From assembly GCF_030813915.1 (NCBI RefSeq), contig NZ_JAUSUJ010000001.1, forward strand, positions 186,001 to 250,000: DNA of 64,000 nt, given 5' to 3'. Of this stretch, positions 32,818-50,653 are shown piece after piece. The notes beneath the pieces were generated by a model. That model was not told the origin of the DNA. It saw only the letters and a program-made list of their open reading frames with translations, and searched no databases. Positions within the stretch are counted from its first letter, which is position 1. Each line of letters starts with the position of its first letter. The DNA comes from Rhodoplanes tepidamans (lineage in GTDB: Bacteria > Pseudomonadota > Alphaproteobacteria > Rhizobiales > Xanthobacteraceae). A program made the position numbers and the translations under genes.

Positions 32818-32835
32818 CGCGCCGGGATACGTGTC

Positions 32836-34044: not shown

Positions 34045-34505
34045 CACACTGGATCGGATTCGTGGTCGAGGGTCTGGTCTCGGTCCTCTTGGTCCTCACC
34101 GTCGTCTACTGCACCATGCTCAACAAGCAGCTGCGCCGGCTGAAGGCCGACGAGCACGCCCTCAAGGCCACCATCGCCGAGCTGATCACGGCGACCGAGA
34201 TCGCCGAGCGGGCGATCGCCGGCCTGAAGGTGACGGTGCGCGACGTCGACCAGAACATCGGCGACCGCCTGCGCACCGCCGAGCGCTTCGCCGCCGACAT
34301 CAGCCGCCAGATCGAGGCCGGCAATCTCGTCCTCGACCGGCTCACCCGGGTGGTGCTGGCCGGCCGGCCGCTGACCGATCCGGACGCCGCCGCCGAGCCG
34401 GCCGCGCCGGCCGCCGCGGCGCCGGCCGACAGCAAGGCCGTGCTCGCCGCGGCCCAGGCCTTCGCCCAGCGCACCCGCGCCCGTGCCCGGGGGCTGGCGG
34501 CATGA
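34041..34505 (+). CDS. DUF6468 family membrane-anchored protein
   Basis: A 154-residue protein with one N-terminal membrane segment (about 7-28) and then a long charged helical region to about 105 (coiled coil), ending Ala-rich. DUF6468 proteins accompany fliM and motE in alphaproteobacterial flagellar operons; their function is not established. It is coupled to fliM by GTGA and to motE by ATGA, so the three are translated together. A role near the stator or C ring is inferred from position. Confidence 0.85.
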   Translation: MTHWIGFVVEGLVSVLLVLTVVYCTMLNKQLRRLKADEHALKATIAELITATEIAERAIAGLKVTVRDVDQNIGDRLRTAERFAADISRQIEAGNLVLDRLTRVVLAGRPLTDPDAAAEPAAPAAAAPADSKAVLAAAQAFAQRTRARARGLAA

Positions 34506-35329
34506 GCCTGATCCGCGAATTGCGGCTCATTCCGGTCGTGCTGTTCGCGGCCGTCTGCCTGCTCGCCCTGAAGATCCTCGGCTTCGTGATGGACGGCGGA
34601 ATCCCGACCGGCGGCTTCGAGCCGCCGGTGTCGCGCGGCGGTCCCGCCGGCCCGTCCGGCCGCCAGCTCGCCAGCGCCGACCCGGCCGCCGGGGGCTCGT
34701 GGGCGAAGCAGATGTTCAACTTCCCCGACGTGACCGGCTCGGTGCCCGACAAGCCGACCGGCTCCGCCCCGTCCAAGCCGAAAGAGGAAAAGAAGGACGA
34801 GAAGCCGAAGCCCGCCGATCCGGAGCCGAGCCCGGGCGGCCTCGTGGTACCGATCCTGCAGCCGCCGATCCCGCCGGGCGAGCGCGCCATGCTGGAACGG
34901 CTGCAGGAGCGCCGGCAGGAGCTCGAGGCGCGGGCCCGCGAGCTCGAGGTGCGCGAGAGCATGCTGCGCTCGGCCGAGAAGCAGCTCGAGCTGCGCATCA
35001 ACGAGCTCAAGGAGCTGGAGGAGCGGATCAAGGTCGCCACCCAGCAGAAGGACGAGGCGGAGGCGCAGCGCTTCAAGAGCCTGGTCACCATGTACGAGAA
35101 CATGCGGGCCAAGGACGCGGCGAAGATCTTCGACCGGCTGGAGATGAAGGTGCTGCTCGACGTCGCCACCCAGATCAATCCGCGCCGGATGTCGGACATC
35201 ATGGCGCTGATGCAGCCCGAGGCGGCCGAGAAGCTGACCGTCGAGCTCGCCCACCGCGCCTCGGCCTCGGTGCGCACCCCGTCGCCGAGCGAGCTGCCCA
35301 AGATCGAAGGGCGGACGCGCACGCAGTGA
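34502..35329 (+). CDS. motE: MotE-type flagellar motility chaperone
   Basis: A 275-residue protein: one membrane segment (about 10-30), a Pro/Lys-rich linker (60-120), a coiled coil (130-195, RRQELEARARELEVRESMLR) and a C-terminal MgtE-N-like domain (200-265, with MYENMRAKDAAKIFDRL and MSDIMALM). MotE in rhizobia is a periplasmic chaperone for MotC and stabilises the motor. Family assignment comes from domain order and operon position. It is the last gene of the fliL operon. Confidence 0.85.
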   Translation: MSLIRELRLIPVVLFAAVCLLALKILGFVMDGGIPTGGFEPPVSRGGPAGPSGRQLASADPAAGGSWAKQMFNFPDVTGSVPDKPTGSAPSKPKEEKKDEKPKPADPEPSPGGLVVPILQPPIPPGERAMLERLQERRQELEARARELEVRESMLRSAEKQLELRINELKELEERIKVATQQKDEAEAQRFKSLVTMYENMRAKDAAKIFDRLEMKVLLDVATQINPRRMSDIMALMQPEAAEKLTVELAHRASASVRTPSPSELPKIEGRTRTQ

Positions 35330-37634: not shown

Positions 37635-38426
37635 CTATCCCTGCCTGAGGCCGGCCCGGACCTCGGCCTCGATCAGGGTCCAGATATGATCGACGAGCCC
37701 GGAAAACTCCGGGCTGCGCTTCACATGGAGGTCGCGCGGTCGCGGCAGGTCGACGCGGATCTCCTCGCGCACCGTGCCGGGCCGCGCCGAGAATACGATC
37801 ACGCGGTCGGACAGGAACACCGCCTCGTCGATCTGGTGGGTGATCAGCAGCACGGTCTTCCTCGTCTCCTGCCAGATCGACAGGAGCTCGGCCTGCATGA
37901 TCTCGCGGGTCTGCGCGTCGAGCGCCGCGAAGGGCTCGTCGAGCAGCAGGATCTTCGGGTTGACGGCGAGCGCGCGGGCGACGTTGACGCGCTGGCGCAT
38001 GCCGCCCGAGAGTTGGTGCGGGTAGTGGTGCTCGAACCCGTGCAGGCCGGCGACGTCGATGAAGCGCTGCGCGGTCCTGTGCGCGTCGGCCTTCGGCACG
38101 CGGGCGAGGGTGAGCCCGTAGGCGACGTTGTCGATCACGGTCTTCCACGGCAGCAGCGAATCCTGCTGGAAGACCACGGCGCGGTCGGGACCGGGACGGT
38201 CGACCGGCCGGCCGTCGACCAGGACGCGTCCGCCGGACGGGGTGATCAGCCCGTCGATGATGCGCAGCAGTGTAGACTTGCCGCTGCCGCTCGCCCCGAC
38301 GATGGAGACGAACTCGCCTTCGGCGACCTCCATGTCGATGTTGCGCAGCGCCTCGATCGACGGCTTGTCGCGGCGCTTGAAGACTTTGTCGATCGCCTCG
38401 ATCTTCAGACGGACCGCGGTGCTCAT
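37635..38426 (-). CDS. ABC importer ATPase (SsuB/TauB/NrtD type)
   Basis: A 263-residue nucleotide-binding subunit. It has Walker A GASGSGKST at about 46-54, the Q-loop in VFQQDSLLPWK, signature LSGGMRQRVNVARAL and Walker B LLLDEPFAALD. Its ATG overlaps the permease stop by four bases. It is the last gene of the cobW-type/amidohydrolase/permease/ATPase operon. The matching binding protein is most likely the one at 43012-43989, across the IclR gene. Confidence 0.93.
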   Translation of the reverse strand: MSTAVRLKIEAIDKVFKRRDKPSIEALRNIDMEVAEGEFVSIVGASGSGKSTLLRIIDGLITPSGGRVLVDGRPVDRPGPDRAVVFQQDSLLPWKTVIDNVAYGLTLARVPKADAHRTAQRFIDVAGLHGFEHHYPHQLSGGMRQRVNVARALAVNPKILLLDEPFAALDAQTREIMQAELLSIWQETRKTVLLITHQIDEAVFLSDRVIVFSARPGTVREEIRVDLPRPRDLHVKRSPEFSGLVDHIWTLIEAEVRAGLRQG

Positions 38427-39205
38427 TCTTGCCTCCAGGGGGCGAGCCGGCGCTCGAGGGCGGCGAACAGGACGCTGCCGATCAGGCCCATGGCGCCCAG
38501 CATGATGACGTAGCCGAGCACCCGGGCGGTGTCGAAGGTCTGGCTGGCCGCCAGGATGGCGAAGCCGAAGCCGGCGAAGGAGCCGAAGAACTCCGCCACC
38601 ACGATGCCGACCAGGGCGCGCGCCCAGGCGACCCGGATGCCGCTGACGATGAACGGCAGGGCGTAGGGGAACGTCACCGTGGTGAAGATCTGCAGGCGGG
38701 TGGCGTTGAACGAGCGCGCCGCCTCGACGAGCTGCCGGTCGGTGGCGCGCAGGCCGGCCTCGGTGGTCACCACCACGGGGAACACCGCGACCATGATGAC
38801 CAGCACGAACTTCGAGGCGAAGCCGAGCCCGAGCCAGGAGATGAACAGCGGCGCCAGCGCGATGATCGGCACCGAGTTGAGAGCGCCGAGCACCGGACCG
38901 GCGGTGAGCGACAGGGCCTGGCTCGACGCCAGCGCGAGACCCACCGCGATGCCGATCGCGACGGACACGACGAAGGAGGTGGTCACCGCCGTGACGGTCG
39001 CCACGGCGTTGGTCCACATGGCGCCGGTCTCGACCTCCTTGACCAGCGCGACGGCGACCTCGGCGGGCGGCACCAGCAGCAGGCGGTTGGTGACCACCAT
39101 GGACACGAGCTGCCAGACGACCAGCACGGCGACGGTGGAGACCGCCACGCGGGTGAGGCCGGCCGTCCGTGTGTCCTGCTCGAGCAATTCGTAGAGTCGT
39201 CGCAC
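38423..39205 (-). CDS. ABC importer permease (SsuC/TauC type)
   Basis: A 260-residue inner-membrane subunit with about six segments and the EAA loop EAARSFNATRLQIFTTVTFPYALP. The GTG at 39205 is ten bases after AGGAG. A GTG at 39223 overlapping the amidohydrolase stop (GTGA) is the alternative. It belongs to the NMT1/nitrate/sulfonate importer class. Confidence 0.9.
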   Translation of the reverse strand: MRRLYELLEQDTRTAGLTRVAVSTVAVLVVWQLVSMVVTNRLLLVPPAEVAVALVKEVETGAMWTNAVATVTAVTTSFVVSVAIGIAVGLALASSQALSLTAGPVLGALNSVPIIALAPLFISWLGLGFASKFVLVIMVAVFPVVVTTEAGLRATDRQLVEAARSFNATRLQIFTTVTFPYALPFIVSGIRVAWARALVGIVVAEFFGSFAGFGFAILAASQTFDTARVLGYVIMLGAMGLIGSVLFAALERRLAPWRQE

Positions 39206-39219
39206 GGGCGCGCTGCTCC

Positions 39220-40602
39220 TCACTGATAGCGGGCGCGGGCCTGCCTGCCCCAGCCCTTCTCGCCCACCACCTTGCCGTCGACGAAGACGGTGCGGCCGCG
39301 CACCAGGGTGCGCACCGGCTTCGCCTTGAAGCGCCGGCCCGCATAGGGCGACCAGCCGGTGAGGCTCAGCACGTCGGCGTCCTTGATCTCGTACTCTCTG
39401 TCGAGATCGATCAGGACGAGGTCGGCGTCGTAGCCGGGCATCACGTCGCCCTTGCGCTCGAGCCCGAACAGCTTCGCCGGCTTCGTCGACATCGCCTCGA
39501 CGGCGCGCTCGATCGGGAACTTGCCCTCCAGAGCGGCGGTGAGGAACATGCTGACGTAGAACTGGGTCGACGGCGTGCCGGTGTGCGCCTTCCAGCCGTC
39601 GATCCAGCCGATCTCCTTCTCCTCGCGGGTGTGCGGGGCGTGATCGGTGGCGACGATGTCGATGGTGCCGTCGGTGAGGCCTTCCCACAGGCTGGGCACG
39701 TTCTTCTCCGGTACCCAGTAGGAGAGCGCGTAGGAGCCGAGCCGCTGGATGGCGCCCCAGTCGCAGCCAAGGAACAGGGCCCACGGGTTGATCTCGCACG
39801 TCACCTTCTGGCCCTCGGCCTTGGCGCGGCGGATCAGGTCGACGCTGCCCGAGGTCTGGGTGTGCAGGATGTGCAGCCGGCAACCCGACGCCTTCTGCAG
39901 CCGCAGCAGCGTGGCGATCGCCGTCTCCCAGATCACCCCGTCATGCGCCGCGTAGGCCTTGGCGTAGGCGAGCGCGTCGCGCTGCTGGCGCTCCCAGAAG
40001 TCCTTTTCGATGACGTCCATGAGGGCCTGATCATGGGGATGGACCATCAGCGGTATGTTCACCTCGGCGCAGTGCTTCATGATCTCGAGGATCTTGCCGT
40101 GGTCGTGCACGCCGATGCCGGGCATGTGCGGGTAGGAGCGGCCGGTGTCGACCACCATGAAGATCTTGAAGGCCGCGATGCCCTGCTCGGCCATGCGCGG
40201 AACCTCTTCGGCGACGGTCGGCGCCGGGTTGAAGTTCCAGTCGACGATCGCGTCGCGCTCGTAGATCGCGAACTGCTTCTTCAGGAGGTCGAGGCTGTTG
40301 GGCGGCGGATTGACGTTCGGCATGGCCACCGAGGTGGTGACGCCGCCGGCTGCGCATTGCAGGGTCGAGGTGTAGATCGTGTCCTTGTACTCGAAGCCCG
40401 GCTCGCTGCCCTCGCGGTGGTGCGAGTGCATGTCGATCACGCCCGGGATGACGGCGAGACCGGAGGCGTCGATCACCTCGGCGGCGGCCGGCTCCTGGCC
40501 CGGCTCGAACAGCCCGGCGATCCGGCCGCCCTCGATGCCGATCGATGTGCGGCCCTTGCCTGTCGCGGTGATCAGCAGGCCGTTCTTGATGACGCAGTCC
40601 AT
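39220..40602 (-). CDS. dihydroorotase/hydantoinase-type cyclic amidohydrolase
   Basis: A 460-residue binuclear metal amidohydrolase. All ligands are visible: DMHSH at 57-61, the carboxylated Lys146 in AAFKIFMV, His188 in MVHPHD, His247 in HILHTQ and Asp320 in ATDHAPH. The closest groups are dihydroorotases and hydantoinases/allantoinases, which open cyclic amides or ureides. It is probably not the biosynthetic PyrC, because it is embedded between a COG0523 GTPase and an ABC importer and lacks pyrimidine genes. The true substrate is unknown. Confidence 0.88.
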   Translation of the reverse strand: MDCVIKNGLLITATGKGRTSIGIEGGRIAGLFEPGQEPAAAEVIDASGLAVIPGVIDMHSHHREGSEPGFEYKDTIYTSTLQCAAGGVTTSVAMPNVNPPPNSLDLLKKQFAIYERDAIVDWNFNPAPTVAEEVPRMAEQGIAAFKIFMVVDTGRSYPHMPGIGVHDHGKILEIMKHCAEVNIPLMVHPHDQALMDVIEKDFWERQQRDALAYAKAYAAHDGVIWETAIATLLRLQKASGCRLHILHTQTSGSVDLIRRAKAEGQKVTCEINPWALFLGCDWGAIQRLGSYALSYWVPEKNVPSLWEGLTDGTIDIVATDHAPHTREEKEIGWIDGWKAHTGTPSTQFYVSMFLTAALEGKFPIERAVEAMSTKPAKLFGLERKGDVMPGYDADLVLIDLDREYEIKDADVLSLTGWSPYAGRRFKAKPVRTLVRGRTVFVDGKVVGEKGWGRQARARYQ

Positions 40603-40621
40603 GACGGGCTCCGGGTGCGGG

Positions 40622-41734
40622 TCAGTTCGAGGAGGGAAGGGCGGAGGCCGGGCGGCGCTGCCGCACCGTGTCCAGGACCTCGGCCACGAAGTCGCGCGAG
40701 AGGGCGCGGGTGATGAAGACGATCTGGGACCGACGATCGGCGGTCGGCCATTCGGGCAGCACGGCGGGGGGATGGAACAGGTGCTGCACGGCCTGCAGCA
40801 CCACCGGGCGTCGCTGGCCGGCGATGTTGAGGATGCCCTTCACCCGCAGGAGGTCGGCGCCGTGCGCCATCACCAGCGCGTCGAGCCATGCGGCGACGTG
40901 CTCCCAGTCCAGCGGCTCGTCGTAGGCGAGACAGAACGAGCCGATCGCCGCGTCGTGGCGGTTGACGTCGTGGTGATGGTGACGGTGGCCGTGCCGGGCG
41001 TGCCCGTGCCCGGCTTGGTCATCGTCCCCGTCGGCGTCGTCGCCCCCATAGGCCTCGGCGTTGAGCCAGGCGAGCACGTTGGTGCCCTTGGTGGCGGGGT
41101 CGTAGATGTCGGTCGCGGCGAGCTCGCTCGGCAGCGGCATGTGGTCGGGCCGCGACACGTGCAGGCGGGCGCCGGGATTGAGGCCGTGCACCCGCGCCGC
41201 CAGCGTCTCCACGACGCCCGGACCGGCGGCGAGGTCGGTCTTGGTGATCACCACCTCGTCGGCGACGGCGGCCTGCTTCAGCGCCTCGGAATGACGGTCG
41301 AGGGTGGCGAGCCCGTTCACGGCGTCGACCGTGGCGACCACCTGGGCGAGGCGATAGCGCCGCGCCACCGGCATGGTCATCAGCGCCTGGATCACCGGCG
41401 CCGGATCGGCGAGCCCGGTGGTCTCGATGACGATGCGGTCGAACGCCCGCACCGCGCCGGCGGCGCGCTTCTCGGTCAGCTCGCGCAGCGTGTCGACGAG
41501 ATCGCCGCGTACCGTGCAGCACAGGCAGCCGGTGGAGAGCTCGATGGTGTTGTCGCTGCTCGCCGCGATCAGCGCGTGGTCGATGCCGACCTCGCCGAAC
41601 TCGTTGACGATGACGGCGGCGCCCGCGAGGTCGGTGGTGCGCAGCCAAGCGTTCAGGAGAGTCGTCTTGCCGCTGCCGAGGAAGCCGGTGAGCAGCATGA
41701 CGGGCAGGCGGTCGTCGGTCGGTGCGGCGGTCAT
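40622..41734 (-). CDS. COG0523 (CobW-type) metallochaperone GTPase
   Basis: A 370-residue G3E GTPase. Walker A GFLGSGKTT is at 17-25, the metal motif CLCC at 70-73, and the NEFGEVGID switch precedes it. A histidine-rich loop (about 240-262, HGHARHGHRHHHH) can bind zinc or other metals, and a CobW C-terminal domain follows. It is the first gene of the operon with the metal-dependent amidohydrolase, so metal delivery to that enzyme is a reasonable inference. COG0523 and dihydroorotase paralogues are known partners in zinc-limitation regulons. Confidence 0.92.
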   Translation of the reverse strand: MTAAPTDDRLPVMLLTGFLGSGKTTLLNAWLRTTDLAGAAVIVNEFGEVGIDHALIAASSDNTIELSTGCLCCTVRGDLVDTLRELTEKRAAGAVRAFDRIVIETTGLADPAPVIQALMTMPVARRYRLAQVVATVDAVNGLATLDRHSEALKQAAVADEVVITKTDLAAGPGVVETLAARVHGLNPGARLHVSRPDHMPLPSELAATDIYDPATKGTNVLAWLNAEAYGGDDADGDDDQAGHGHARHGHRHHHHDVNRHDAAIGSFCLAYDEPLDWEHVAAWLDALVMAHGADLLRVKGILNIAGQRRPVVLQAVQHLFHPPAVLPEWPTADRRSQIVFITRALSRDFVAEVLDTVRQRRPASALPSSN

Positions 41735-41787
41735 CGGGCGTTCACCCGACGGGCCCGGCCAGAGGTGAGGCAAGCTTGAGAGCGCAT

Positions 41788-41801
41788 ATTGTCAGAATAT
41801 G
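41788..41801 (-). promoter_or_regulatory. shared 14-bp motif at the cobW-type operon promoter
   Basis: On the minus strand CATATTCTGACAAT, overlapping the -10. On the plus strand it forms part of the inverted repeat CATATT-N5-AATATG (41785-41801). The same motif, with T for C, occurs upstream of the binding-protein gene at 42918-42931. It is a candidate IclR-regulator site. Confidence 0.6.
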
Positions 41802-41821
41802 GCAAAAAGCATGTTTGTCAA
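41794..41821 (-). promoter_or_regulatory. sigma-70 type promoter of the cobW-type/amidohydrolase operon
   Basis: Minus strand TTGACA (41821-41816), 16 bases, TATTCT (41799-41794). The start would be about 50 bases before the ATG at 41734. Confidence 0.6.
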
Positions 41822-42010
41822 ACTGTGTCGTAATGCAGACGTGCCTGGCTGTGGATGCCCGCCCTGCACGGGAGCCCGCGGGGAGCGGCGGCGGGCCGAT
41901 GCGGTGCGAAACCCGCGGGCGCCGGCCGGCACGCGCACGCGGTCGGCCCGGCGCGCGCCGGCCCGTCGGTGAGGGTGGAATGCGGGATGCGTGCCGCCCG
42001 GCTCGCCGGT

Positions 42011-42847
42011 TCAGCCGACCCGCCGGCGATCCCCGGGCAGAGCTGCGGCGGGCGGCGCGTCGGCCGGCCCCGGACCATTCGTTGCCGGCGCGGCGGCGGC
42101 GCCGTCGTCGTCGGCGGCGAGGGCGGACGAGATCGACGCGGCGACGCCGGTCACCAGCGTGGACAGCCGCTGCAGCGCCTCGCCGGTCGCCGGCGCGACC
42201 ACCAGGCTGAGGCTGGCGACGATCTGGTCGCCGCGCAGGATCGGTGCCGCGATGCCCATGCGGTTCTGGCCGATCTCCGATTCGGTCACCGCCACGCCGG
42301 CCTTGCGGACGTCGCGCAGCATGGCGCGGAACTGCCGCCAGGTCTCGATGCCGGAGGTGCGGATGGCTTCCTCATTGCGCAGGTAGATGCCGCGCAGCAC
42401 CCGGTCGGGCAGGTGAGAGAGCATGATCTTGGCCGGCGCGCCGCGGAACGGCGACATCGCGACGCCGCGCTCGTAGCTCGCTATCGGGTTGGCCGCCTCC
42501 GCCTCGACGCCGTGAACGCACATCACGCAGTCGCGGAACCGCCGGCACAGCAGCGCGGCGGCCGGCCGGCCGGCCCCGTCGAGCAGCGCCAGCATGCCGG
42601 GCGAGGCGATCCGGATCAGCGGATCGCTCTGCCGGATGATGCGGTCGAAGCGGATGAACGCCGGCCCGAGCACGTAGGTGGCGCCGGGGCCGGGATCGAG
42701 GAAGCCGTTCCGGGTCAGCTCGGCGACGGTCCGGTACGAGGTCCGCACCGAGACCCCGAGCTCCCGCGCGATCGCCTCGACGGTCCAGGCCGCGTCGCCA
42801 CCGTCGAACAGGTGAAGGACCGAGAGAATGTGGCTGGGTCTGCTCAT
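42011..42847 (-). CDS. IclR-family transcriptional regulator
   Basis: A 278-residue regulator with a winged HTH at about 15-60 (WTVEAIARELGVSVRTSYR) and an IclR effector domain (80-250) with KIMLSHLPDRVLRGIY. The tail is Ala/Pro-rich. It is divergent from the binding-protein operon and adjacent to the cobW-type operon. Both have the motif CATATTyTGACAAT at their promoters. It most likely controls both and itself. Confidence 0.93.
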   Translation of the reverse strand: MSRPSHILSVLHLFDGGDAAWTVEAIARELGVSVRTSYRTVAELTRNGFLDPGPGATYVLGPAFIRFDRIIRQSDPLIRIASPGMLALLDGAGRPAAALLCRRFRDCVMCVHGVEAEAANPIASYERGVAMSPFRGAPAKIMLSHLPDRVLRGIYLRNEEAIRTSGIETWRQFRAMLRDVRKAGVAVTESEIGQNRMGIAAPILRGDQIVASLSLVVAPATGEALQRLSTLVTGVAASISSALAADDDGAAAAPATNGPGPADAPPAAALPGDRRRVG

Positions 42848-42911
42848 GCGGAATGCTCAGGAAACCTGCAGGTGACGATCAAACTTCAAGCATAAGCGCG
42901 TCAACTATGCA

Positions 42912-42932
42912 AATTGACATATTTTGACAATT
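42912..42932. promoter_or_regulatory. inverted repeat operator between iclR-type gene and binding-protein gene
   Basis: AATTG-N11-CAATT, perfect arms, overlapping the -35 of the binding-protein operon. It encloses the shared motif CATATTTTGACAAT (42918-42931). Confidence 0.6.
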
Positions 42933-42941
42933 AGCGATATT
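42914..42941 (+). promoter_or_regulatory. sigma-70 type promoter of the binding-protein/PrpD/ODH operon
   Basis: TTGACA (42914-42919), 16 bases, GATATT (42936-42941). The start is about 60 bases before the ATG at 43012. The patch is far more AT-rich than the flanks. Confidence 0.55.
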
Positions 42942-43011
42942 GCATCGATGTGACATTCTGGTTCAGTCGATGTTTCGCTGCGGACCCCTCCGCTGTCAGA
43001 AGGAGAGCGAC

Positions 43012-43989
43012 ATGAAGCGGCTTGTTCAGGTGATGGCAGTGGCCGTGGTGGCGGGCCTCGCGTCCGGGCCGGGCCCGGCCCGGGCCCAGGCGCCGGCCAA
43101 GACCGAGGTTCGGCTCGCCGTGCTGGCGCCGAGCTCGCTCCTGTGGCTGCACGCGATCGCCAAGACCGAGGGCTTTTACGCGGAGCGCAACATCGACATC
43201 AAGGAGCTGGTCGCCGCCGGTAGTCCGGCGCTGCTGCAGGCGGTGTCGAGCGGCAGCGTCGAGGCCGGCATCGCGGTCGCCGATCTCGCCATCCGGGCGA
43301 TCGACAAGGACGCGCCGATCGTCATCGCCGGGGCGGTGCTGCACAAGTCGGTCCTCCGCCTCGTCGGCGGCAAGGGCGTGACCAAGATCTCCGACATGGC
43401 CGGCAAGCCGGTGACGGCCGGCGGCGTCAGCGGCGGCACCGCCAACCTGCTCCGCTACCTCGTCAAGCGGGCCGGGGTCGACGACAGGTCGCTCAGGCTG
43501 GTCGCCATGGCGAACTCCAAGGACCGCATCGTCGCGATGGACAACGGCCAGGTCCAGGGCGCCCTGCTGATCGCCCCGTTCGACACCATGGCACAGCGCA
43601 ACGGCATGAAGGTGCTCGACGACTACACCGATCCGTATCTCCAGACGCCGCTGATCCTCAACAAGGACTGGGCCGCCAAGAACCGCCTGGCCGCCGAGGG
43701 GGTGACCCAGGCCCTGCAGAAGGCGGCGAACTGGATCTACGCGCCCGCCAACAAGCAGCGCGCGATCGACATCCTGGCGACCTATACCAACGTCGCCAAG
43801 GACGTCTGCGCCGAGTCCTACGCCTTCGTCGTCGAGCAGCAGAAGGCCATCGCGCCCGACCTCGACGTCTCGGCGGCGAGCCTGACGAACCTGATCCTCA
43901 TCGACAACGCCGTGTCCGACAACCCGTCCTCGTCGCGCGAGTTCGTGCTGTCCCGCTACTACGATCCGAGCTTCCGCAAGTCCCGCTGA
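43012..43989 (+). CDS. ABC importer solute-binding protein (NMT1/SsuA-like)
   Basis: A 325-residue periplasmic protein with a signal peptide of about 25 residues ending ARA/Q. The NMT1-like fold is evident from the AKTEGFYAERNIDIKELVAAG segment. AAGGAGAG precedes the ATG at 43012. No permease or ATPase follows. Those of the operon at 37635-39205 are the likely partners, given the shared promoter motif. The ligand is unknown. Confidence 0.92.
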   Translation: MKRLVQVMAVAVVAGLASGPGPARAQAPAKTEVRLAVLAPSSLLWLHAIAKTEGFYAERNIDIKELVAAGSPALLQAVSSGSVEAGIAVADLAIRAIDKDAPIVIAGAVLHKSVLRLVGGKGVTKISDMAGKPVTAGGVSGGTANLLRYLVKRAGVDDRSLRLVAMANSKDRIVAMDNGQVQGALLIAPFDTMAQRNGMKVLDDYTDPYLQTPLILNKDWAAKNRLAAEGVTQALQKAANWIYAPANKQRAIDILATYTNVAKDVCAESYAFVVEQQKAIAPDLDVSAASLTNLILIDNAVSDNPSSSREFVLSRYYDPSFRKSR

Positions 43990-44070
43990 AGGCTCCGCGC
44001 CGCGGAGCGTCCCTTCGCGGCGCGGCCATCCTCCGGGACGCCCGCCGTGCCGCCGCCGGTGTACCGTTCG

Positions 44071-45495
44071 ATGACCACGACCCTGTCGTCCTCCCGGATG
44101 CGGCCCCTCGTCGCCGAACGTCTCGGCGCCTTCGTGTCCGGCGTGCCGGCCCGCGACATCCCGGCCGCCGCGATCGCGACGGCGCGCCGCGGCATCGTCG
44201 ACGCGATCGGTGTCGCTTTTGCCGGCACCCGCATGCCCGTCCATGCGGCGGTTCGCAGCGTTCTGGCGCGGGAGGCGGCTCCGGGGCCGTGCACCGTGAT
44301 CGGCGGCGGCCGGCTCGCCGCGACGGCGGCCGCGCATCTCAACGCAGTCGGCGCGCATTCGCTCGATTTCGACGCCAACTACAGCGTCGGCATGCTGTTC
44401 GGCCCGGCCGTTCTGAGCCCGGTCCTGCTCGCGGCGGCGGAGGAGCGCGGCGCCGCCGGCGCCGACGTGCTCGCCGCCTTCGCGATCGGCACGGAGATCG
44501 CCCAGATCGTCGCCCGAAGCCTGTCCGGCGTGCCCTACAGCAAGGCGGTCGACGGGCTCTATGGCCGCGGCTGGTTCAACAGCGCCGTGCTCGGGCCGAT
44601 CAGCGCCGCCGCGGCGGCCGCGCGGTTGATGCGGCTCGACGCCCGGCGCGCCGCCGATGCGATCGCGATCGCGGCCGTCCAGGCCGGCGGCCTGCGCATC
44701 GCGGTCGGCTCCGACATGAAGCCGGCCCTGTGCGGCCGCGCCGCCGAGACCGGGCTCCGGGCGGCACTGATGGCCGAGGCCGGCGTCGAGGCACCGGCCG
44801 ACGCCTTCGAGGGATCGCGCGGCCTCGTCCAGGTGGTCGGTGGCGGCGCCTGGGACGAGGCCGTGCTGGACGTCCTCGGCGCCTTCGCGGATCCCGGCAT
44901 CTCGTTCAAGCTGCATCCGGCCTGCTCGTCCGTGCAGGCGGCCGTCGAAGCCGTCGGCCGGTTGATGGCGACCGAGGCCTTCGCGGCCCGCGACGTCGTC
45001 CGCGTGGTCTGCGAGGTGACGCCGCACATCGCCGCGAACCTCGCCTTCCCGCGGCCCGAGAACGTGACCCAGGCGCAATTCTCGATGCCGTTCGCGGTCG
45101 CCTGCCGGCTGCTCCACGGTCGGCTCGGCGCCGACATGCTGACCATGGACGTGGTGCGGGATCGCGCCGTGCGGACCATCATGGACAAGGTCGAGATGCG
45201 CCGCTCGGCCGATTTCGACAGCGCCGAGATGCGGGCCCGCGCGCCCGAGGCGACCCGGGTGATCGTGACGCTCGCCGACGGACGCAGCGTCTCCCACCTG
45301 CAGCTCTCGGCGACCGGCAAGCCGGAGAACCCGATGCCGGACGCCGACCTCGACGGCAAGTTCCTCGACAACGTCTCGCCGTTTCTCGGGGCCGACGGAG
45401 CCGGCCGGCTCCTCGCCGCCCTGCGCGCGCTCGACACGCTCGCCGACATGCGCGACGTGTTCGGGCCGCCTCACGGCCCGGAGGCGGGCCGATGA
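44071..45495 (+). CDS. MmgE/PrpD family protein
   Basis: A 474-residue member of the 2-methylcitrate dehydratase/aconitate decarboxylase superfamily. Family marks are RRGIVDAIGVAFAG near the N-terminus, HSLDFDAN at about 95, GISFKLHPACSSVQAAVEA and the closing small alpha+beta domain. Many members away from prp genes have unknown substrates, as here: no prpB or prpC is present. The ATG at 44071 is chosen; a GTG at 44047 is possible. The stop overlaps the next gene (ATGA). Confidence 0.88.
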   Translation: MTTTLSSSRMRPLVAERLGAFVSGVPARDIPAAAIATARRGIVDAIGVAFAGTRMPVHAAVRSVLAREAAPGPCTVIGGGRLAATAAAHLNAVGAHSLDFDANYSVGMLFGPAVLSPVLLAAAEERGAAGADVLAAFAIGTEIAQIVARSLSGVPYSKAVDGLYGRGWFNSAVLGPISAAAAAARLMRLDARRAADAIAIAAVQAGGLRIAVGSDMKPALCGRAAETGLRAALMAEAGVEAPADAFEGSRGLVQVVGGGAWDEAVLDVLGAFADPGISFKLHPACSSVQAAVEAVGRLMATEAFAARDVVRVVCEVTPHIAANLAFPRPENVTQAQFSMPFAVACRLLHGRLGADMLTMDVVRDRAVRTIMDKVEMRRSADFDSAEMRARAPEATRVIVTLADGRSVSHLQLSATGKPENPMPDADLDGKFLDNVSPFLGADGAGRLLAALRALDTLADMRDVFGPPHGPEAGR

Positions 45496-46571
45496 GGGTC
45501 GGGATTCTCGGCGCCGGCGCCATCGCCTTCGCCTCGGCGTCGGTGCTCGCCGCTGCCGGCCACCAGGCGACCCTGTGGTCGCCGTCGGGCCGCAGCACGG
45601 CGTCATTCGGGCCGCGAGCCCGGATCGTCGCCAAGGGCGCGATCACCGGGGCGTGCGAGGTGACGATCGCCGCGACGGCCGCCCAGGCGGTCGCGGGCGC
45701 CGACGCCGTGCTGATCGCGGTCGACGCTGGCGGCCACGTCGCGGTCATGGAGGCGGCGGCGCCGCATCTCGTCTCTGGCCAGGTCGTGATGGTCAGCGCC
45801 GCACATTCGCTCGGCGCCCTCGTGCTGTCGAAGCTCGCGGCGGCACGCGGCACGAGGCCCGTGATCGTATCGTGGAGCACCTCGATCGGCACCGCCAGCA
45901 AGACCGCCGTCGGCGAGGTCGACATGCGCTCGGTCCGGCCGCGCATCCAGGCCTCGGTGATGCCTTACGGCGAGACCGCGGCGGCGCTCGGGCTGTGCGC
46001 GGCGCTGTTCGGCGACCGCTTCGAGGCGCGCGCCGATGCGATCGAGATCGGCCTGCTGGCCAACGCCAACCCGGTCTTCCACGTGCCGGCCATGCTGCTC
46101 AACGTCGCCCGCATCGAGCACGGCGAGACGTGGGCGCCCTATGCGCAGACCACGGTGGCGGTCGGCCGGCTGATGGAGGCGCTCGACCGCGAGCGCATCG
46201 CGCTGGGGGCCGCGCTCGGCGCGACCATCCACAGCGTCAACGAGCACTTCCACCGCTCGTTCGAGATCCCGCTCGGCACGATGGCGGAGATGAACGCCAC
46301 GCTCGCGGCCAGGGGGCGGGGCCCCAGGGGGCCGACCTCGACGGCGCATCGATTCCTGGCGCAGGACATTCCCTACGGCCTCGTCTTCGCCGCCGCGCTC
46401 GCCCGCCGGGCGGGCGTTCCGGCACCGGTCCACGAGGCGACCATCACGCTCGCCGACGCCGCGCTCGGCCGCGACCACCGGGCCGAGAACGCGATCCTGT
46501 CGTGCCTGCGGCTCGAGGATCGGCCGTGGTCCGAGATCGTGCGTCTCGCGACCGAGGGCTGGCTCGGCTAG
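45492..46571 (+). CDS. octopine/nopaline (opine) dehydrogenase-family enzyme
   Basis: A 359-residue two-domain NAD(P) enzyme. The Rossmann motif GILGAGAIAFASA is at 4-16. The C-terminal all-helical domain has the family's LLANANPVFHVPAML, in which the His is the likely proton donor, and HRFLAQDIPYGLVF. Opine dehydrogenases join or split an amino acid and a 2-oxoacid through a secondary amine. Translation is coupled to the PrpD gene. In this setting oxidation of an imported N-containing acid is plausible but unproven. Confidence 0.85.
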   Translation: MRVGILGAGAIAFASASVLAAAGHQATLWSPSGRSTASFGPRARIVAKGAITGACEVTIAATAAQAVAGADAVLIAVDAGGHVAVMEAAAPHLVSGQVVMVSAAHSLGALVLSKLAAARGTRPVIVSWSTSIGTASKTAVGEVDMRSVRPRIQASVMPYGETAAALGLCAALFGDRFEARADAIEIGLLANANPVFHVPAMLLNVARIEHGETWAPYAQTTVAVGRLMEALDRERIALGAALGATIHSVNEHFHRSFEIPLGTMAEMNATLAARGRGPRGPTSTAHRFLAQDIPYGLVFAAALARRAGVPAPVHEATITLADAALGRDHRAENAILSCLRLEDRPWSEIVRLATEGWLG

Positions 46572-46753: not shown

Positions 46754-46816
46754 CCTGCCGGCGGCTCCTGACGGCCTGCCGGCGGCTTCTACCGGCCTGC
46801 CGGCGGCTTGGCCGCG
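46754..46816. repeat. 21-bp tandem repeat across the ubiD 3' end
   Basis: Three units beginning CCTGCCGGCGGCT at 46754, 46775 and 46796; the third diverges after 13 bases. The second unit contains the ubiD stop codon (46789-46791), so slippage has altered the C-terminus or the 3' flank. Confidence 0.8.
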
Positions 46817-48387
46817 AAGGCGGAGCCGCGCACGCACATGCGGCCGGTCCGGTCCTGCCACAGCCGTTCGGTCGTGTGCAGGTGTCCCAGCGCGCGGGCG
46901 ACGGTCTGGAAGTTGTAGCCCGCGAACGCCTCGGCGATGTCGGTGTAGTACATCGGCTCGGCCGCGATCTTCTCCAGGATGGCGTCGGCGAGCCGCGCCA
47001 CCTCGTTGTCGCCGCCCGTCTCGCCTTCCGGGTCGGTCTTGCCGGCGACGTAGTCGTCGATCTTCGCCGTGTCGGCATAGGCGTAGGTGATGCGCTCGTA
47101 GGCCTCGCGCTGGGCGTATTCCGGGATGGTGGCGTCGATGCCCATCTTGGCGCCGGTGGGCACCACGCCGGGCGGCATCGGCAGCAGGCTCGGATCGAGC
47201 GGCTTGGCCCGCGCGTTCGAGATGATCATCACGTCGCGGTCGGCCTGCACGCGGGTGGCGATCGCCCACTCGACCTCGGCGGGATCGAACACGTCGATGT
47301 CGTCGTCGACCACGACCACGTGCTTGAGGTCCATCACCGAGAGCGCCGCGAGCAGCGCGTTCTTGCCCTCGCCGGCCTGCTTCCTGATGGAGATCACGGC
47401 GTGCCAGAAGGCGCAGCCGCCGAGCGTGACGTTGATGTCCTTGACCGTGACGCCGGCGGTCTTGAGCGCCTGGCGCAGCGCCGCGTAGCGGGTCGGCGCG
47501 GCGAGCCAGGTGTTCTCCCACGGCATGTGCAGCGAGTAGTAGACGGCGTCGCGGCGCATCGCGACGGCCTTGATGCGCACCAGCGGATTCCAGTGCAGCC
47601 CGCCCATCAGCCGGGTGAACTCGCCGAAGCGGCCCTCCGGCCAGGTCCATCCGGTCGGCAGGATCTCGGCCTCGAGCACGATCTCGGCGTCGGCGATGTA
47701 GGGCACGTCGATGGTCTCGCAGGGCGCGAGCGCGACCGGCGCGCCGCGCAGGCCGCCGGCGATCCCCATCTCGTCGACGCCGAGCGGGGCGCGGAAGCCG
47801 GAGCCGGTGATCTCGTAGGGGTGGGTGCCGATGCTGATCGAAATCGGGCAGGGGCGGCCCGCTTTGTATGCACGGTCCGCGAACAGCCGCATGTTGTTCG
47901 GGGTGACGATGTCGATGCCGGTGAGGTTCTTCTCTTTGACGATGAACCGGTAGATGCCGCTGTTGAAGCCGAGCTCCGGGTCCCTGGCGATCACCACGCC
48001 GGCCGTGATCATCGGGCCGCCGTCGTAGATCGACGACATCGGAATGGGCAGCTTGAACAGGTCGACCTCGTCGCCCCGCATCACCACCTCGCGGGTGGGC
48101 GAGGTGTCGACCCGCACCGGCGGGATCGGCGCGGCGGTGGCGCGGCGGAGCCTCTCCTCGATCTCGCCGTAGCTTCCGGCGTGCATCGACATCATGGCCC
48201 GCTTCTGCGTGCGGATGATGCCCGAGACGACGGGTGTGCGGTATCCGATCACGTCGTGGAAGAACAGCGCCTTGTCCGACTGGTCGACCAGGGTGGCGAT
48301 GTGGCGGATGTCCACGGGCTGGCGAAGGTCGACGAGCTCGCCGGCCTCGCGCAGCCGGTCGAGGAACTGTCGGAACGTCTCTTGCAT
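46789..48387 (-). CDS. UbiD-family prenylated-FMN decarboxylase
   Basis: A 532-residue enzyme that reversibly decarboxylates aromatic, heteroaromatic or alpha,beta-unsaturated acids using prFMN. The UbiD core is intact: FNSGIYRFIVKEKN, GTHPYEITGSGFRAPLG, and the acidic pair of the catalytic triad in AEIVLEAEILP and EGRFGEF at about 230-250. The C-terminal multimerisation region is present. It is not an obvious ubiquinone-pathway UbiD, being next to degradative genes. The flavin prenyltransferase UbiX is not in the window. The substrate is unknown. Confidence 0.9.
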   Translation of the reverse strand: MQETFRQFLDRLREAGELVDLRQPVDIRHIATLVDQSDKALFFHDVIGYRTPVVSGIIRTQKRAMMSMHAGSYGEIEERLRRATAAPIPPVRVDTSPTREVVMRGDEVDLFKLPIPMSSIYDGGPMITAGVVIARDPELGFNSGIYRFIVKEKNLTGIDIVTPNNMRLFADRAYKAGRPCPISISIGTHPYEITGSGFRAPLGVDEMGIAGGLRGAPVALAPCETIDVPYIADAEIVLEAEILPTGWTWPEGRFGEFTRLMGGLHWNPLVRIKAVAMRRDAVYYSLHMPWENTWLAAPTRYAALRQALKTAGVTVKDINVTLGGCAFWHAVISIRKQAGEGKNALLAALSVMDLKHVVVVDDDIDVFDPAEVEWAIATRVQADRDVMIISNARAKPLDPSLLPMPPGVVPTGAKMGIDATIPEYAQREAYERITYAYADTAKIDDYVAGKTDPEGETGGDNEVARLADAILEKIAAEPMYYTDIAEAFAGYNFQTVARALGHLHTTERLWQDRTGRMCVRGSAFAAKPPAGR

Positions 48388-48433
48388 ACCGGACTCCGGG
48401 ATTTTTTCGGGGGGCGGACGCCACCTGGTGTCG

Positions 48434-48454
48434 ACGATCGCGGGCCGCGATCGT
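48434..48454. promoter_or_regulatory. 21-bp palindrome in the ubiD-reductase divergent region
   Basis: ACGATCGCGG-G-CCGCGATCGT, exact arms, with a further ACGATCG at 48462-48468. It lies in the ubiD leader, 47 bases before its ATG. It is a candidate operator; no regulator gene is adjacent. Confidence 0.5.
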
Positions 48455-48528
48455 ACAACGAACGATCGGGCGACGGCGCACCCTCCGAAGCCAGATCCGT
48501 GCCGCCCGCCCTGCGTGCGACACCACTT

Positions 48529-48556
48529 TGCATATCAGGCTGCCTGGGTTAATCAA
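48529..48556 (-). promoter_or_regulatory. possible sigma-70 promoter of ubiD
   Basis: Minus strand TTGATT (48556-48551), 16 bases, TATGCA (48534-48529). The leader would be about 135 bases and include the 21-bp palindrome. Confidence 0.4.
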
Positions 48557-48643
48557 GAGGCCCGGAAGGCCCCGTACGACGGCCCGTGTCCGGGCGAGCG
48601 AGACCCGGCGAACGGGATTTTGGACGAAGAGGAGACGAAGGCT

Positions 48644-49660
48644 TTGAGCGCGACGATGCGAGCTCTGGTGCTGCGGCGGCACGGCACTCTCGACGATCTG
48701 GACTACGTGACCGACCATCCGCGGCCGACCGTCACGGAGGGGCACGTCGTCATCCGCGTGCGCGCCTCCTCGTTCAATTACCACGACGTCTTCACGGTTC
48801 GCGGCATGCCGGGCATCAAGGTGCCGCTGCCGGTGGTGATCGGCCTCGACATGGCGGGCGAGATCGCCGAGGTCGGCGCCGGCGTGACCGGCTGGAAGCC
48901 GGGCGACCGCGTGCTGGTCAATCCGCTCAACAGGAAGAAGGGCCTGATGGGCGAGATGCTCGACGGCGGCATGGCGGAGTACTGCCTCGTCGCGGCCGAC
49001 CAGCTCATCGCCATGCCGGCCGACGTGACCTTCGAGCAGGCGGCGGCGCTGCCGGTCGCCTACGGCACCGCGCACCGCATGCTGATCACCCACGACACCG
49101 TCAAGGCCGGCGACAAGGTGGTCGTGCTCGGCGCCTCCGGCGGCGTCGGCACCGGCTGCGTCATCCTGGCCAAGATGCTGGGCGCCGAGGTGATCGCCTG
49201 CGCGTCGAGCGAGAGCAAGCTCAAGCGCCTCTCCGAGATGGGCGCCGACCACGTGATCGACTACACCAAGACCGACTTCTCCAAGTGGGCGGTCGAGCGC
49301 TACGGCAAGCCGCAGCGCCGCACCTACGAGGGCGGCGTCGACGTGGTGATCAACTTCACCGGCGGCGACACCTGGGCGCCGTCGCTCAAATGCGTCAAGC
49401 GCGGCGGCAAGATCCTGGTCTGCGGCGCCACCGCCGGCCACGATCCCAAGGAGGATCTCCGCTACATCTGGAGCTTCGAGCTGCAGATCCTCGGCTCGAA
49501 CAGCTTCTACGACGACAACCTGGCGGCCCTGATGGAGCTGATCGCGGCGAAGAAGCTCGCGCCCGTGATCGACACGGTCCTGCCGCTCGACCAGGCCCGC
49601 GAGGGCCTGCGCCTGATCCAGGACCGCGAGGTGATCGGCAAGGTCGTCGTCACGCCGTGA
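48644..49660 (+). CDS. zinc-independent MDR-family oxidoreductase (quinone reductase/alcohol dehydrogenase-like)
   Basis: A 338-residue MDR protein: GroES-like N-domain, then a Rossmann domain with LGASGGVGTG at about 160-169. The catalytic-zinc Cys/His (replaced in SFNYHDV and GLDMAGE) and the structural-zinc cysteines are missing, so it is more likely an NADPH enone/quinone reductase than a zinc alcohol dehydrogenase. The TTG at 48644 is chosen because GAGGAG lies eight bases upstream; the ATG at 48656 would be 20 bases away from it. It is divergent from ubiD. Confidence 0.87.
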   Translation: MSATMRALVLRRHGTLDDLDYVTDHPRPTVTEGHVVIRVRASSFNYHDVFTVRGMPGIKVPLPVVIGLDMAGEIAEVGAGVTGWKPGDRVLVNPLNRKKGLMGEMLDGGMAEYCLVAADQLIAMPADVTFEQAAALPVAYGTAHRMLITHDTVKAGDKVVVLGASGGVGTGCVILAKMLGAEVIACASSESKLKRLSEMGADHVIDYTKTDFSKWAVERYGKPQRRTYEGGVDVVINFTGGDTWAPSLKCVKRGGKILVCGATAGHDPKEDLRYIWSFELQILGSNSFYDDNLAALMELIAAKKLAPVIDTVLPLDQAREGLRLIQDREVIGKVVVTP

Positions 49661-49707
49661 TCGCTTCGGAACTCCGGGAGGTTTGCCACGATCGTCCCGG
49701 CGCCCGA

Positions 49708-49876
49708 CCCCCCTCCCGGTCCCTCCCCCACAAGGGGGGAGGGACCGCAGGAGCCGTAACCGCTCGAATGTCGAGCAGATGAATTCGACGAAAGGTCCTG
49801 CGCCCGATGGTCCAAGCGTCTGCCCCGATCTCCGCCTGCTCCGTCCCCCTTGTGGGGGAAGGGTGGGGAGGGGGGC
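49708..49876. repeat. inverted-repeat element of about 170 bp
   Basis: The ends are imperfect inverted copies of about 30 bp sharing CCCCCACAAGGGGG, and the first half (49718-49746) is itself a 12-bp hairpin. It has no coding capacity. It separates the reductase gene from the thioesterase gene and probably weakens read-through. Confidence 0.55.
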
Positions 49877-49921
49877 AGCGTCCCGGCAGGGCGGCGCGGA
49901 GGCCTCACCGACAGGACATCC

Positions 49922-50347: not shown

Positions 50348-50360
50348 CATCGGTGAATCT

Positions 50361-50629: not shown

Positions 50630-50653
50630 GCGGAGGGGCGAGTGGCCGGCATC

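What the first reader, a model, noticed from the sequence alone, without database searches (positions are those of the whole stretch)
37635..46571. A split but apparently co-regulated uptake and catabolism system around an IclR regulator
One operon (minus strand) has a COG0523 GTPase, a binuclear-metal cyclic amidohydrolase, and an ABC permease and ATPase but no binding protein. The other (plus strand, across the iclR-type gene) has a binding protein of the same importer class, a MmgE/PrpD protein and an opine-dehydrogenase-type enzyme but no permease or ATPase. The two halves complete one another and share a promoter motif. I know of no described pathway with this set. A cyclic amide, imide or imino acid would fit the enzymes, which is inference.
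Basis: partly seen in the sequence, partly recalled or inferred. Interest (0 to 1): 0.78.

Follow-up and report, generated by a model that had tools for sequence, protein, structure and literature searches.

The report
Rearranged IclR-controlled ring-opening catabolic regulon
A bacterium carries a small, rearranged set of genes that appear to import a ring-shaped nitrogen compound and break it down under one genetic switch; the gene set and the shared switch site are well supported by comparison, but the compound itself is unknown.

Summary
Window 37635-46571 has two divergent transcription units: (-) COG0523 GTPase, dihydroorotase-like amidohydrolase (AHase), ABC permease, ATPase; (+) NMT1-type binding protein, MmgE/PrpD protein, opine-dehydrogenase-type enzyme (ODH). 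An IclR gene (-) lies between.

Relatives show one system: in 4 of 36 named AHase loci all seven genes plus IclR form one divergent cluster, and in 17 more the binding protein heads a COG0523-AHase-permease-ATPase operon. The "split" is local: AU tests make the window a mosaic, with COG0523 and permease of Rhodoplanes type but IclR and binding protein of the MmgE/ODH-bearing lineage.

The shared motif is a 17-bp palindrome, TTGNCA-N5-TGNCAA, found exactly 4 times in 6.86 Mb, 2 of them the promoters here. A relative keeps IclR, MmgE and ODH at a second locus with the same operator.

Likely function (inferred): uptake and hydrolytic opening of a carboxylated cyclic amide; AHase keeps dihydroorotase's carboxylate-binding Arg/Asn/His in 23 of 23 aligned orthologues. 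The MmgE/PrpD protein lacks both active-site histidines (6 of 6). Substrate unidentified. New variant of a known kind.

The parts
37635..38426 (-). ABC importer ATPase (SsuB/TauB/NrtD-like)
   Evidence: ABC_tran 115.9 bits; start ATG 38426; follows the permease in 22 of 36 named relatives
38423..39223 (-). ABC importer permease (SsuC/TauC-like), GTG start
   Evidence: BPD_transp_1 101.2 bits; TauC/SsuC/SaoP models below their cut-offs; rejects the MmgE/ODH-bearing lineage in the AU test
39220..40602 (-). Dihydroorotase/hydantoinase/allantoinase-like amidohydrolase (AHase)
   Evidence: Amidohydro_1 80.9 bits; best PDB match L-hydantoinase 1gkr, 216 bits; H59, H61, K146, H188, H244, H247, D320 (metal-ligand type, by alignment) and R63, N96, H324 invariant in 23 of 23 aligned orthologues
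40622..41734 (-). COG0523 (G3E) GTPase with P-loop, GCLCC motif and His-rich loop
   Evidence: cobW 162.4 and CobW_C 81.4 bits; sequence; beside AHase in 33 of 36 named loci
41789..41805 (.). Operator before cobW (TTGCCATATTCTGACAA on the minus strand), overlapping the -10 box
   Evidence: resembles the R. serenus (L034) operon promoter, 22 of 37 non-operator bases
41794..41821 (-). Promoter-like TTGACA-16-TATTCT for the cobW operon
   Evidence: 2 such sites in 10.5 kb
42011..42847 (-). IclR-type regulator
   Evidence: IclR_C 33.0 bits against cut-off 24; groups with the MmgE/ODH-bearing lineage
42914..42930 (.). Operator TTGACATATTTTGACAA in the iclR / binding-protein intergenic region
42914..42941 (+). 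Promoter-like TTGACA-16-GATATT for the binding-protein operon
43012..43989 (+). NMT1/THI5-type periplasmic binding protein with signal peptide-like N-terminus
   Evidence: NMT1 63.1 bits; model pLDDT 89.0; among the best Foldseek matches 4nmy, 3ix1, 3qsl, 6ssy at 16-18% identity
44047..45495 (+). MmgE/PrpD-family protein; start uncertain (GTG 44047 or a downstream ATG)
   Evidence: MmgE_PrpD_N 163.4 and _C 113.6 bits; active-site His equivalents are F118 and F177 in 6 of 6
45492..46571 (+). Opine-dehydrogenase-type NAD(P) enzyme (ODH), overlaps the previous gene by 4 bases
   Evidence: Octopine_DH 116.7 bits; PDB 1bg6 100.5 bits; N193, H197, W214, D292 invariant in 8 of 8

Best explanation
One IclR-controlled catabolic regulon for a small carboxylated cyclic amide (lactam, imide, dihydropyrimidine- or hydantoin-like ring), in a locally rearranged form. 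The NMT1-type binding protein (plus strand) delivers the compound to the permease/ATPase (minus strand). The cytoplasmic dihydroorotase-like AHase opens the ring at a two-metal centre; the COG0523 GTPase supplies or guards that metal. Where present, the MmgE/PrpD protein and the opine-type dehydrogenase process the ring-opened, N-substituted amino acid, the dehydrogenase by oxidative C-N cleavage. IclR represses both promoters at TTGNCA-N5-TGNCAA until the compound or a product binds it. In this genome a resident Rhodoplanes COG0523-AHase-permease-ATPase operon lost its own binding protein and IclR, and now works with an IclR/binding-protein/MmgE/ODH segment of another lineage. Supported by computation: gene content, one system, shared operator-like site, mosaic origin. 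Inferred: that IclR binds there and represses, metal delivery, carboxylated substrate, order of steps, reactions of MmgE and ODH. Not known: the substrate.
For: One cluster with all seven genes plus divergent IclR in L042, L049, L054, L055; NMT1 binding protein directly upstream of COG0523-AHase in 23 of 36. Operator: 4 exact sites per 6.86 Mb, 2 of them here; up to 1 mismatch in 12 of 33 first-gene regions against a mean of 0.43 (largest 3) in shuffles (the pattern was drawn by eye from some of these regions). ODH orthologues occur in 3 of 60 relatives, all within the 8 AHase carriers (0.0016 by counting including the window, 0.012 without it; relatedness not corrected). Mosaic: AU tests reject a clade with Rhodoplanes for the window's IclR (1e-70) and binding protein (0.0015), and a clade with the MmgE/ODH-bearing loci for permease (0.0004) and COG0523 (2e-8). 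AHase keeps the Arg/Asn/His that hold the alpha-carboxylate in dihydroorotase (PMC12809426, passages) in 23 of 23. ODH keeps a His-Asp pair and a Trp (family features in PMC10787698, passages).
Against: No ligand, expression or enzyme data. The carboxylate triad is not specific: 5 of the 6 paralogues in the 29-row alignment keep it. MmgE-ODH is absent beside AHase in 32 of 36 named loci, so it is not needed for the core function. The MmgE protein lacks the bases proposed for iminodisuccinate epimerase and cis-aconitate decarboxylase, so no known reaction of that family can be assigned. L039 and L041 have no COG0523 or IclR match within the stretch held. The exact operator is missing from the core locus of 4 of 7 relatives searched genome-wide, and 3 of the 7 have no exact site at all; in the 33 regions only 6 are exact and 27 differ, 9 of them having TTCGCA-N5-TGCGAA instead. 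Besides MmgE (4 loci) and ODH (5), the ORF families recurring in 4 or more loci that I listed sit on the core genes or on other strands and frames, and no carbamoylase or half-amidase, which a hydantoin or imide pathway would need, was seen among what I scanned; 3-locus families were not all scanned. The genome holds other weakly similar NMT1-type binding proteins and ATPases, so exclusive pairing is not proven.
Confidence: 0.6

Rival explanations
1. The two operons are separate systems for different compounds that only happen to be neighbours.
For: MmgE-ODH is absent beside AHase in 32 of 36 named loci; trees show different histories for the two halves; other NMT1-type binding proteins and ATPases exist in the genome.
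Against: Neither half has a whole importer of its own here; single-cluster versions exist; shared rare operator; second locus of G004 with the same operator.
Confidence: 0.07
2. The substrate is a neutral hydantoin or ureide (hydantoinase or allantoin-type pathway), with the racemase-like, MmgE and ODH genes handling stereoisomers.
For: Closest solved structure is an L-hydantoinase (Foldseek rank 1); an AMDase/EutA/maleate-isomerase-like gene follows AHase in L034, L045 and L051.
Against: AHase keeps R63 and N96, absent at these positions from the L-hydantoinase and the allantoinases in the alignments; no carbamoylase seen among the genes scanned; the hydantoinase and allantoinase models listed are far below their cut-offs.
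Confidence: 0.15
3. AHase is a true dihydroorotase and the system salvages orotate or dihydroorotate.
For: Full carboxylate triad; TIGR00857 248 bits.
Against: Below the curated cut-off of 279; the genome has a separate PyrC of the other type over its cut-off (TIGR00856, 414.7 against 292.95) and three further loci over TIGR00857, the best of which lacks the triad; opine dehydrogenase and MmgE have no place in that pathway.
Confidence: 0.12
4. Opine-lactam or glycation-product (hydroimidazolone) catabolism: AHase opens the lactam or imidazolone to an N-carboxyalkyl amino acid, which the opine dehydrogenase oxidises.
For: Explains why a cyclic amidohydrolase and an opine dehydrogenase sit in one operon; ODH catalytic-type residues intact.
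Against: Only 4 of 36 named loci have the ODH orthologue in the operon; no direct evidence; the chemistry is recalled, not tested.
Confidence: 0.12

Closest known systems
Type I dihydroorotase / allantoinase / hydantoinase family (cyclic amidohydrolases)
   Same: Fold, metal-ligand residues, Lys for carbamylation, dihydroorotase R/N/H carboxylate triad
   Different: Below the cut-off of each of the 25 curated models shown of 59 matched; orthologues at 72-95% identity; catabolic-type operon with importer; conserved DTGRxYPHMPGIGVHDHG and NPWA[L/V]FLG segments
Taurine/sulfonate/nitrate-type ABC importers (TauABC, SsuABC, NMT1 binding proteins)
   Same: Binding-protein, permease and ATPase families
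   Different: 16-18% identity to the four best-ranked structures named; ligand unknown; binding protein in the opposite operon here
COG0523 metallochaperones linked to metalloenzymes (nitrile hydratase activator, Zur-linked sets; PMC2770081, passages)
   Same: CxCC, P-loop, CobW_C, metalloenzyme as neighbour; that paper also links COG0523 to a Zur-regulated dihydroorotase paralogue
   Different: IclR-type operator instead of Zur; partner keeps its metal ligands, whereas the Zur-linked PyrC paralogue lacks them. 'hydantoin' and 'amidohydrolase' occur 0 times in that main text
Iminodisuccinate epimerase / cis-aconitate decarboxylase (MmgE/PrpD)
   Same: Family by sequence
   Different: Equivalents of bsIRG1 His102 and His151 are Phe in 6 of 6; the Tyr position is Phe in 5 of 6, with a Tyr next to it
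N-(1-D-carboxyethyl)-L-norvaline / octopine dehydrogenases
   Same: Octopine_DH domain, His-Asp pair, Trp
   Different: Sits in an importer/amidohydrolase regulon; only 100 bits to 1bg6

Membership tests
Dihydroorotase (PyrC) | alpha-carboxylate triad Arg/Asn/His and metal ligands | tested here: met
   R63, N96, H324, H59, H61, K146, H188, D320 in 23 of 23; role of the triad from PMC12809426, passages
Dihydroorotase (PyrC) | curated model cut-off (TIGR00857, 279.05 bits) | tested here: not met
   248.4-248.7 bits; three other loci in the genome exceed it, and a PyrC of the other type exceeds TIGR00856
Hydantoinase / allantoinase | curated model cut-offs | tested here: not met
   allantoinase TIGR03178 247.8 of 357.85, hydantoinase TIGR02033 206.1 of 393.25
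Hydantoinase / allantoinase | activity on hydantoin or allantoin | not testable with these tools
   needs assay
COG0523 GTPase | P-loop, GCxCC, CobW_C domain | tested here: met
MmgE/PrpD family | N- and C-terminal Pfam domains over cut-off | tested here: met
   163.4 and 113.6 bits
Iminodisuccinate epimerase / cis-aconitate decarboxylase | catalytic His (H99/H103 type) and second base | tested here: not met
   F118, F177 in 6 of 6; residues from PMC7347537, passages; chain numbering taken as offset by 2
Opine dehydrogenase | Octopine_DH domain with His-Asp dyad | tested here: met
   116.7 bits; H197, D292 in 8 of 8; that these are the dyad is by alignment and recall
NMT1-type ABC importer | binding protein, permease and ATPase of one class, cognate | tested here: inconclusive
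   same class and same operon in relatives; ligand and coupling not testable
IclR-family regulator | IclR_C over cut-off and IclR HTH | tested here: met
   IclR_C 33.0 (cut-off 24); HTH_IclR 21.8, just under its 22

The most novel reading that the evidence does not exclude
An undescribed modular catabolic pathway shared patchily by Alpha- and Betaproteobacteria: a COG0523-assisted, dihydroorotase-like ring-opening enzyme on a carboxylated N-heterocycle, combined with interchangeable importers (NMT1-ABC or TctC) and interchangeable second-step modules (a MmgE/PrpD protein of new chemistry, without the usual His bases, plus an opine dehydrogenase; or an AMDase/EutA-like enzyme), all under one IclR operator that changes with its regulator.
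Probability: 0.4. Interest if true: 0.62.

Novelty: new variant of a known kind. Interest (0 to 1): 0.5.

Why it matters
It gives a defined, testable regulon: one operator, two promoters, a binding protein to screen and an amidohydrolase family that is more conserved than its operon partners. It offers a case for whether a COG0523 GTPase metallates a specific amidohydrolase, and a MmgE/PrpD subfamily whose lost active-site histidines predict new chemistry. It also shows how a split locus can arise by replacement of regulator and binding protein while the operator is kept.

Tried and rejected
Rejected: the idea that the split is an ancestral design (relatives have single operons); AHase as the genome's biosynthetic PyrC (a PyrC of the other type passes its cut-off; three loci pass TIGR00857, though the best of them lacks the triad); MmgE as an iminodisuccinate-type epimerase (bases missing). 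Considered and left as speculation: opine lactams, hydroimidazolones, ectoine-like rings.

Led nowhere: fold search of the binding-protein model gave only distant ligand classes; the AHase model (pLDDT 79.7, several active-site loops under 60) only repeated the sequence result; ODH relatives on plasmids (39.7-42.5% in the 30 of 242 records listed) sit with other ABC systems in the three places read; PMC7356986 (4-hydroxypyridine; abstract and passages) is an unrelated amidohydrolase; PMC9863593 and PMC11818841 gave no carboxylate-residue data (passages); PMC8222616 (IclR motifs; passages) has 0 mentions of COG0044, COG0523 or COG2079 in the main text. The literature statement rests on searches in an open-licence library; papers in those listings that are not named here were not opened.

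Limits: one search finds only loci that match exact peptide patterns, so 36 is a lower bound, and its four full clusters were found through AHase, not blindly. Trees used 18-22 relatives per gene, chosen by me out of the 36 loci (plus L098 for IclR); one row was dropped for a stop in the translated stretch (COG0523 of L040). The groups of the AU tests were named after seeing identities and the quick trees. The operator pattern was chosen by eye before one search was counted.
Full report
OBSERVATION. Minus strand, in order of transcription: COG0523 GTPase 41734-40622, amidohydrolase (AHase) 40602-39220, permease 39223-38423, ATPase 38426-37635; AHase/permease and permease/ATPase overlap by 4 bases each. 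Plus strand: NMT1-type binding protein 43012-43989, MmgE/PrpD protein 44047-45495, opine-dehydrogenase-type enzyme (ODH) 45492-46571. The IclR gene, 42011-42847, is on the minus strand between them. The assembly has 6,859,241 bases in 63 contigs; the window is C1:186001-250000. The closest named loci are Rhodoplanes, and the locus lies at the same place as in Rhodoplanes sp. Cfx2-03, between fliM/motE/lysR/tauE-type genes and ubiD/adh/AMP-ligase genes (L025 and L033). Names for G handles in this report come from matching contig lengths and positions.

ONE SYSTEM. A scan of genome contigs (84,980 species genomes by the tool's description) with AHase gave 36 named loci, among them Rhodoplanes, Xanthobacter, Azorhizobium, Aquabacter, Ancylobacter, Mesorhizobium, Aureimonas, Martelella and Betaproteobacteria (Ottowia, Hydrogenophaga, Parapusillimonas, Bordetella petrii, Achromobacter). 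tblastn of the window genes on them: COG0523 beside AHase in 33 of 36 (not in L039 and L041; in L068 the contig begins inside AHase); a divergent IclR in 31 of 36 (of the five without, L060, L064 and L068 are cut by contig ends and L039, L041 have another context); NMT1 binding protein in 23 of 36, in each directly upstream of COG0523; permease-ATPase in 22 of 36; MmgE and ODH together, between AHase and the permease, in 4 of 36 (L042 Aquabacter sp. P-9, L049 Ancylobacter defluvii, L054 Mesorhizobium sediminum, L055 Aureimonas fodinaquatilis). These four are the unsplit form of the window's gene set. Seventeen more have binding protein, COG0523, AHase, permease and ATPase in one operon (L034 with two genes inserted). 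Betaproteobacterial loci have IclR <-> COG0523-AHase followed by a TctC-type binding protein (L051 by Pfam; L045, L050, L052, L057 by eye); the two from uncultured Betaproteobacteria, L059 and L060, have the NMT1 protein instead. In L034, L045 and L051 an AMDase/EutA/maleate-isomerase-like gene follows AHase (L034 and L051 by family scans, L045 by similarity). R. serenus (L034) has both kinds in one operon: NMT1 protein, COG0523, AHase, AMDase-like, TctC-like, permease, ATPase.

RARITY AND CO-OCCURRENCE. AHase orthologues (82% identity or more): 8 of 60 relatives including the window's genome and, at E <= 1e-150 and apart from the window's genome, 0 of 384 genomes spread over the class. ODH orthologues (E <= 1e-95): 3 of 60 relatives, all AHase carriers, and besides the window 0 of 396 over the order. 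Counting gives 0.0016 for 3 of 3 falling among 8 of 60, and 0.012 without the window's own genome; relatedness is not corrected for. A looser class-wide search (E <= 1e-70) found ODH relatives of 44% in 4 of 384 other genomes, without the window's other genes in the 4-kb stretches held.

OPERATOR. The two intergenic regions share a 17-bp palindrome, TTGNCA-N5-TGNCAA, at 41789-41805 and 42914-42930. With up to 1 mismatch nothing else in 64 kb matches. In the whole genome there are 4 exact sites, 0 for the reversed control pattern. In 33 first-gene upstream regions (2 of the window, 31 of relatives) a match with at most 1 mismatch occurs in 12 against a mean of 0.43 (largest 3) in 200 shuffles, and with at most 2 in 26 against 4.34 (largest 9); the pattern had been drawn by eye from some of these. 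Exact are 6 of 33: both window regions, L033, L042, L049, L061. Nine others, eight betaproteobacterial loci and Pararhizobium (L045, L048, L050, L051, L053, L057, L058, L065; L056), hold an exact TTCGCA-N5-TGCGAA instead, as one would expect if the site changed with its IclR (inference). Against: of 7 relatives searched genome-wide the exact site lies in the core locus of 3 (G001, G004, G022) and not of 4; G002, G003 and G011 have no exact site anywhere, and a single hit of the reversed control pattern occurs in three genomes (G002, G014, G022). The operator overlaps the -10 box of the cobW promoter, which suggests repression. An independent check came from G004: its core operon is on contig C1, a protein search put an ODH orthologue (58%) on C51, and a separate pattern search put one of its four exact operators on C51, 1.6 kb upstream. 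The stretch reads IclR (73% to the window's) <- operator -> MmgE (60%) - ODH (58%) - TctC. So in a close relative the second module lies elsewhere in the genome under the same operator.

MOSAIC ORIGIN OF THE SPLIT. In maximum-likelihood trees the window's binding protein and IclR fall with the MmgE/ODH-bearing loci (support 100/98 and 97/91) and not with Rhodoplanes (AU p 0.0015 and 1e-70), while its COG0523 falls with Rhodoplanes (99/98) and its permease too (66/95, not strong), and both reject the MmgE/ODH-bearing group (p 2e-8 and 4e-4). AHase and ATPase trees were not built. Identities agree: AHase 95%, permease 89%, ATPase 87%, COG0523 82% to Cfx2-03, but IclR 64% and binding protein 72% to Aquabacter P-9. 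The cobW promoter of the window resembles the binding-protein promoter of R. serenus (22 of 37 non-operator bases; 7-18 of 37 for the other seven relatives compared). I infer that a resident operon lost its binding protein and regulator and kept its promoter, while an IclR/binding-protein/MmgE/ODH segment came in from another lineage.

FUNCTION. AHase is most like L-hydantoinase, dihydroorotase and allantoinase, yet below the cut-offs of the 25 curated models shown. It keeps the metal-ligand residues and also the Arg, Asn and His that bind the alpha-carboxylate in dihydroorotase (PMC12809426, passages read): R63, N96, H324 in 23 of 23 orthologues. In L-hydantoinase and the allantoinases the Arg and Asn are absent at these positions in the alignments. 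Against specificity: 5 of 6 paralogues in the 29-row alignment keep the triad too. I infer a carboxylated cyclic amide. The genome has a PyrC of the other type well over its cut-off (TIGR00856, 414.7 bits), so AHase is probably not needed for pyrimidine synthesis; three loci also pass TIGR00857, the best of which lacks the triad. AHase is more conserved than its partners (for Martelella, L062: AHase 72%, ATPase 64%, permease 57%, COG0523 49%, binding protein 47%, IclR 41%). The binding protein models well (pLDDT 89.0) and its four best-ranked distinct structures, among them a thiamine, a thiamine-precursor and a taurine binder, share 16-18% identity with it: class, not ligand. ODH keeps a His-Asp pair and a Trp (H197, D292, W214 in 8 of 8), features named for opine dehydrogenases in PMC10787698 (passages); that they are the equivalents of CENDH His202/Asp297 is recalled. 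The MmgE protein is the odd one: the two His proposed near the substrate in B. subtilis IRG1, the first of them shared with iminodisuccinate epimerase (PMC7347537, passages), align with F118 and F177, Phe in 6 of 6 (chain numbering offset by 2, my reading); the Tyr position is Tyr in the window and Phe in 5 of 6, where a Tyr stands next to it. No known reaction of that family can be assumed.

A CLUE FROM OTHER CONTEXTS. In a Devosia MAG (L039) AHase (82%) follows a TctC gene and two DUF1989 (urea-amidolyase-associated) genes, near sulfopyruvate-decarboxylase-like subunits and a CO-dehydrogenase-type molybdenum subunit. This hints at nitrogen-rich heterocycle breakdown but is one locus.

VERDICT. 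The split is explained as a local rearrangement. Substrate, and the reactions of the second module, remain unknown. Interest is moderate: a well-delimited regulon, not found described in my searches, made of known protein families, with one component of likely new chemistry. After the self-check I lowered the main confidence slightly (0.62 to 0.60) because the exact operator is missing from 4 of 7 relatives' core loci.

Noticed in passing
L039:3693-9899: Devosia MAG: AHase orthologue next to two DUF1989 genes, TctC, sulfopyruvate-decarboxylase-like subunits and a CO-dehydrogenase-type molybdenum subunit; no COG0523 or IclR match within the stretch.
   Followed up: partly
L098:7042-12175: Unlinked second locus in Rhodoplanes Cfx2-03: IclR <- operator -> MmgE-ODH-TctC.
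   Followed up: yes
L034:11377-13639: R. serenus has an AMDase/EutA-like gene and a TctC-like gene inserted between AHase and permease.
   Followed up: partly
L074:5758-9380: Paraburkholderia plasmid: a distant AHase relative (31%) near another COG0523-like gene and a GntR regulator, possibly a parallel case.
   Followed up: no
L053:1128-2252: Hydrogenophaga MAG: a more distant Octopine_DH-family gene (36% to the window's ODH) lies beyond the IclR gene of the AHase locus.
   Followed up: no
window 46789-52189: UbiD-type decarboxylase (-), zinc-type alcohol dehydrogenase, an unassigned 250-aa ORF and an AMP-binding ligase; neighbours kept wholly or in part in Rhodoplanes relatives.
   Followed up: no
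window 28491-35329: Flagellar genes (FlgH, FlgA, FlgG/F-type, FliL, FliM); 34502-35329 has no Pfam hit and a sub-cut-off FlbB match.
   Followed up: no
window 57751-61761: 1336-aa ORF with only weak TPR matches below cut-off.
   Followed up: no
L093 (G000:C25:50003-50019): A further exact operator-like site, by eye between a regulator-like ORF and a branched-chain-type permease ORF (no family scan); may be chance.
   Followed up: partly
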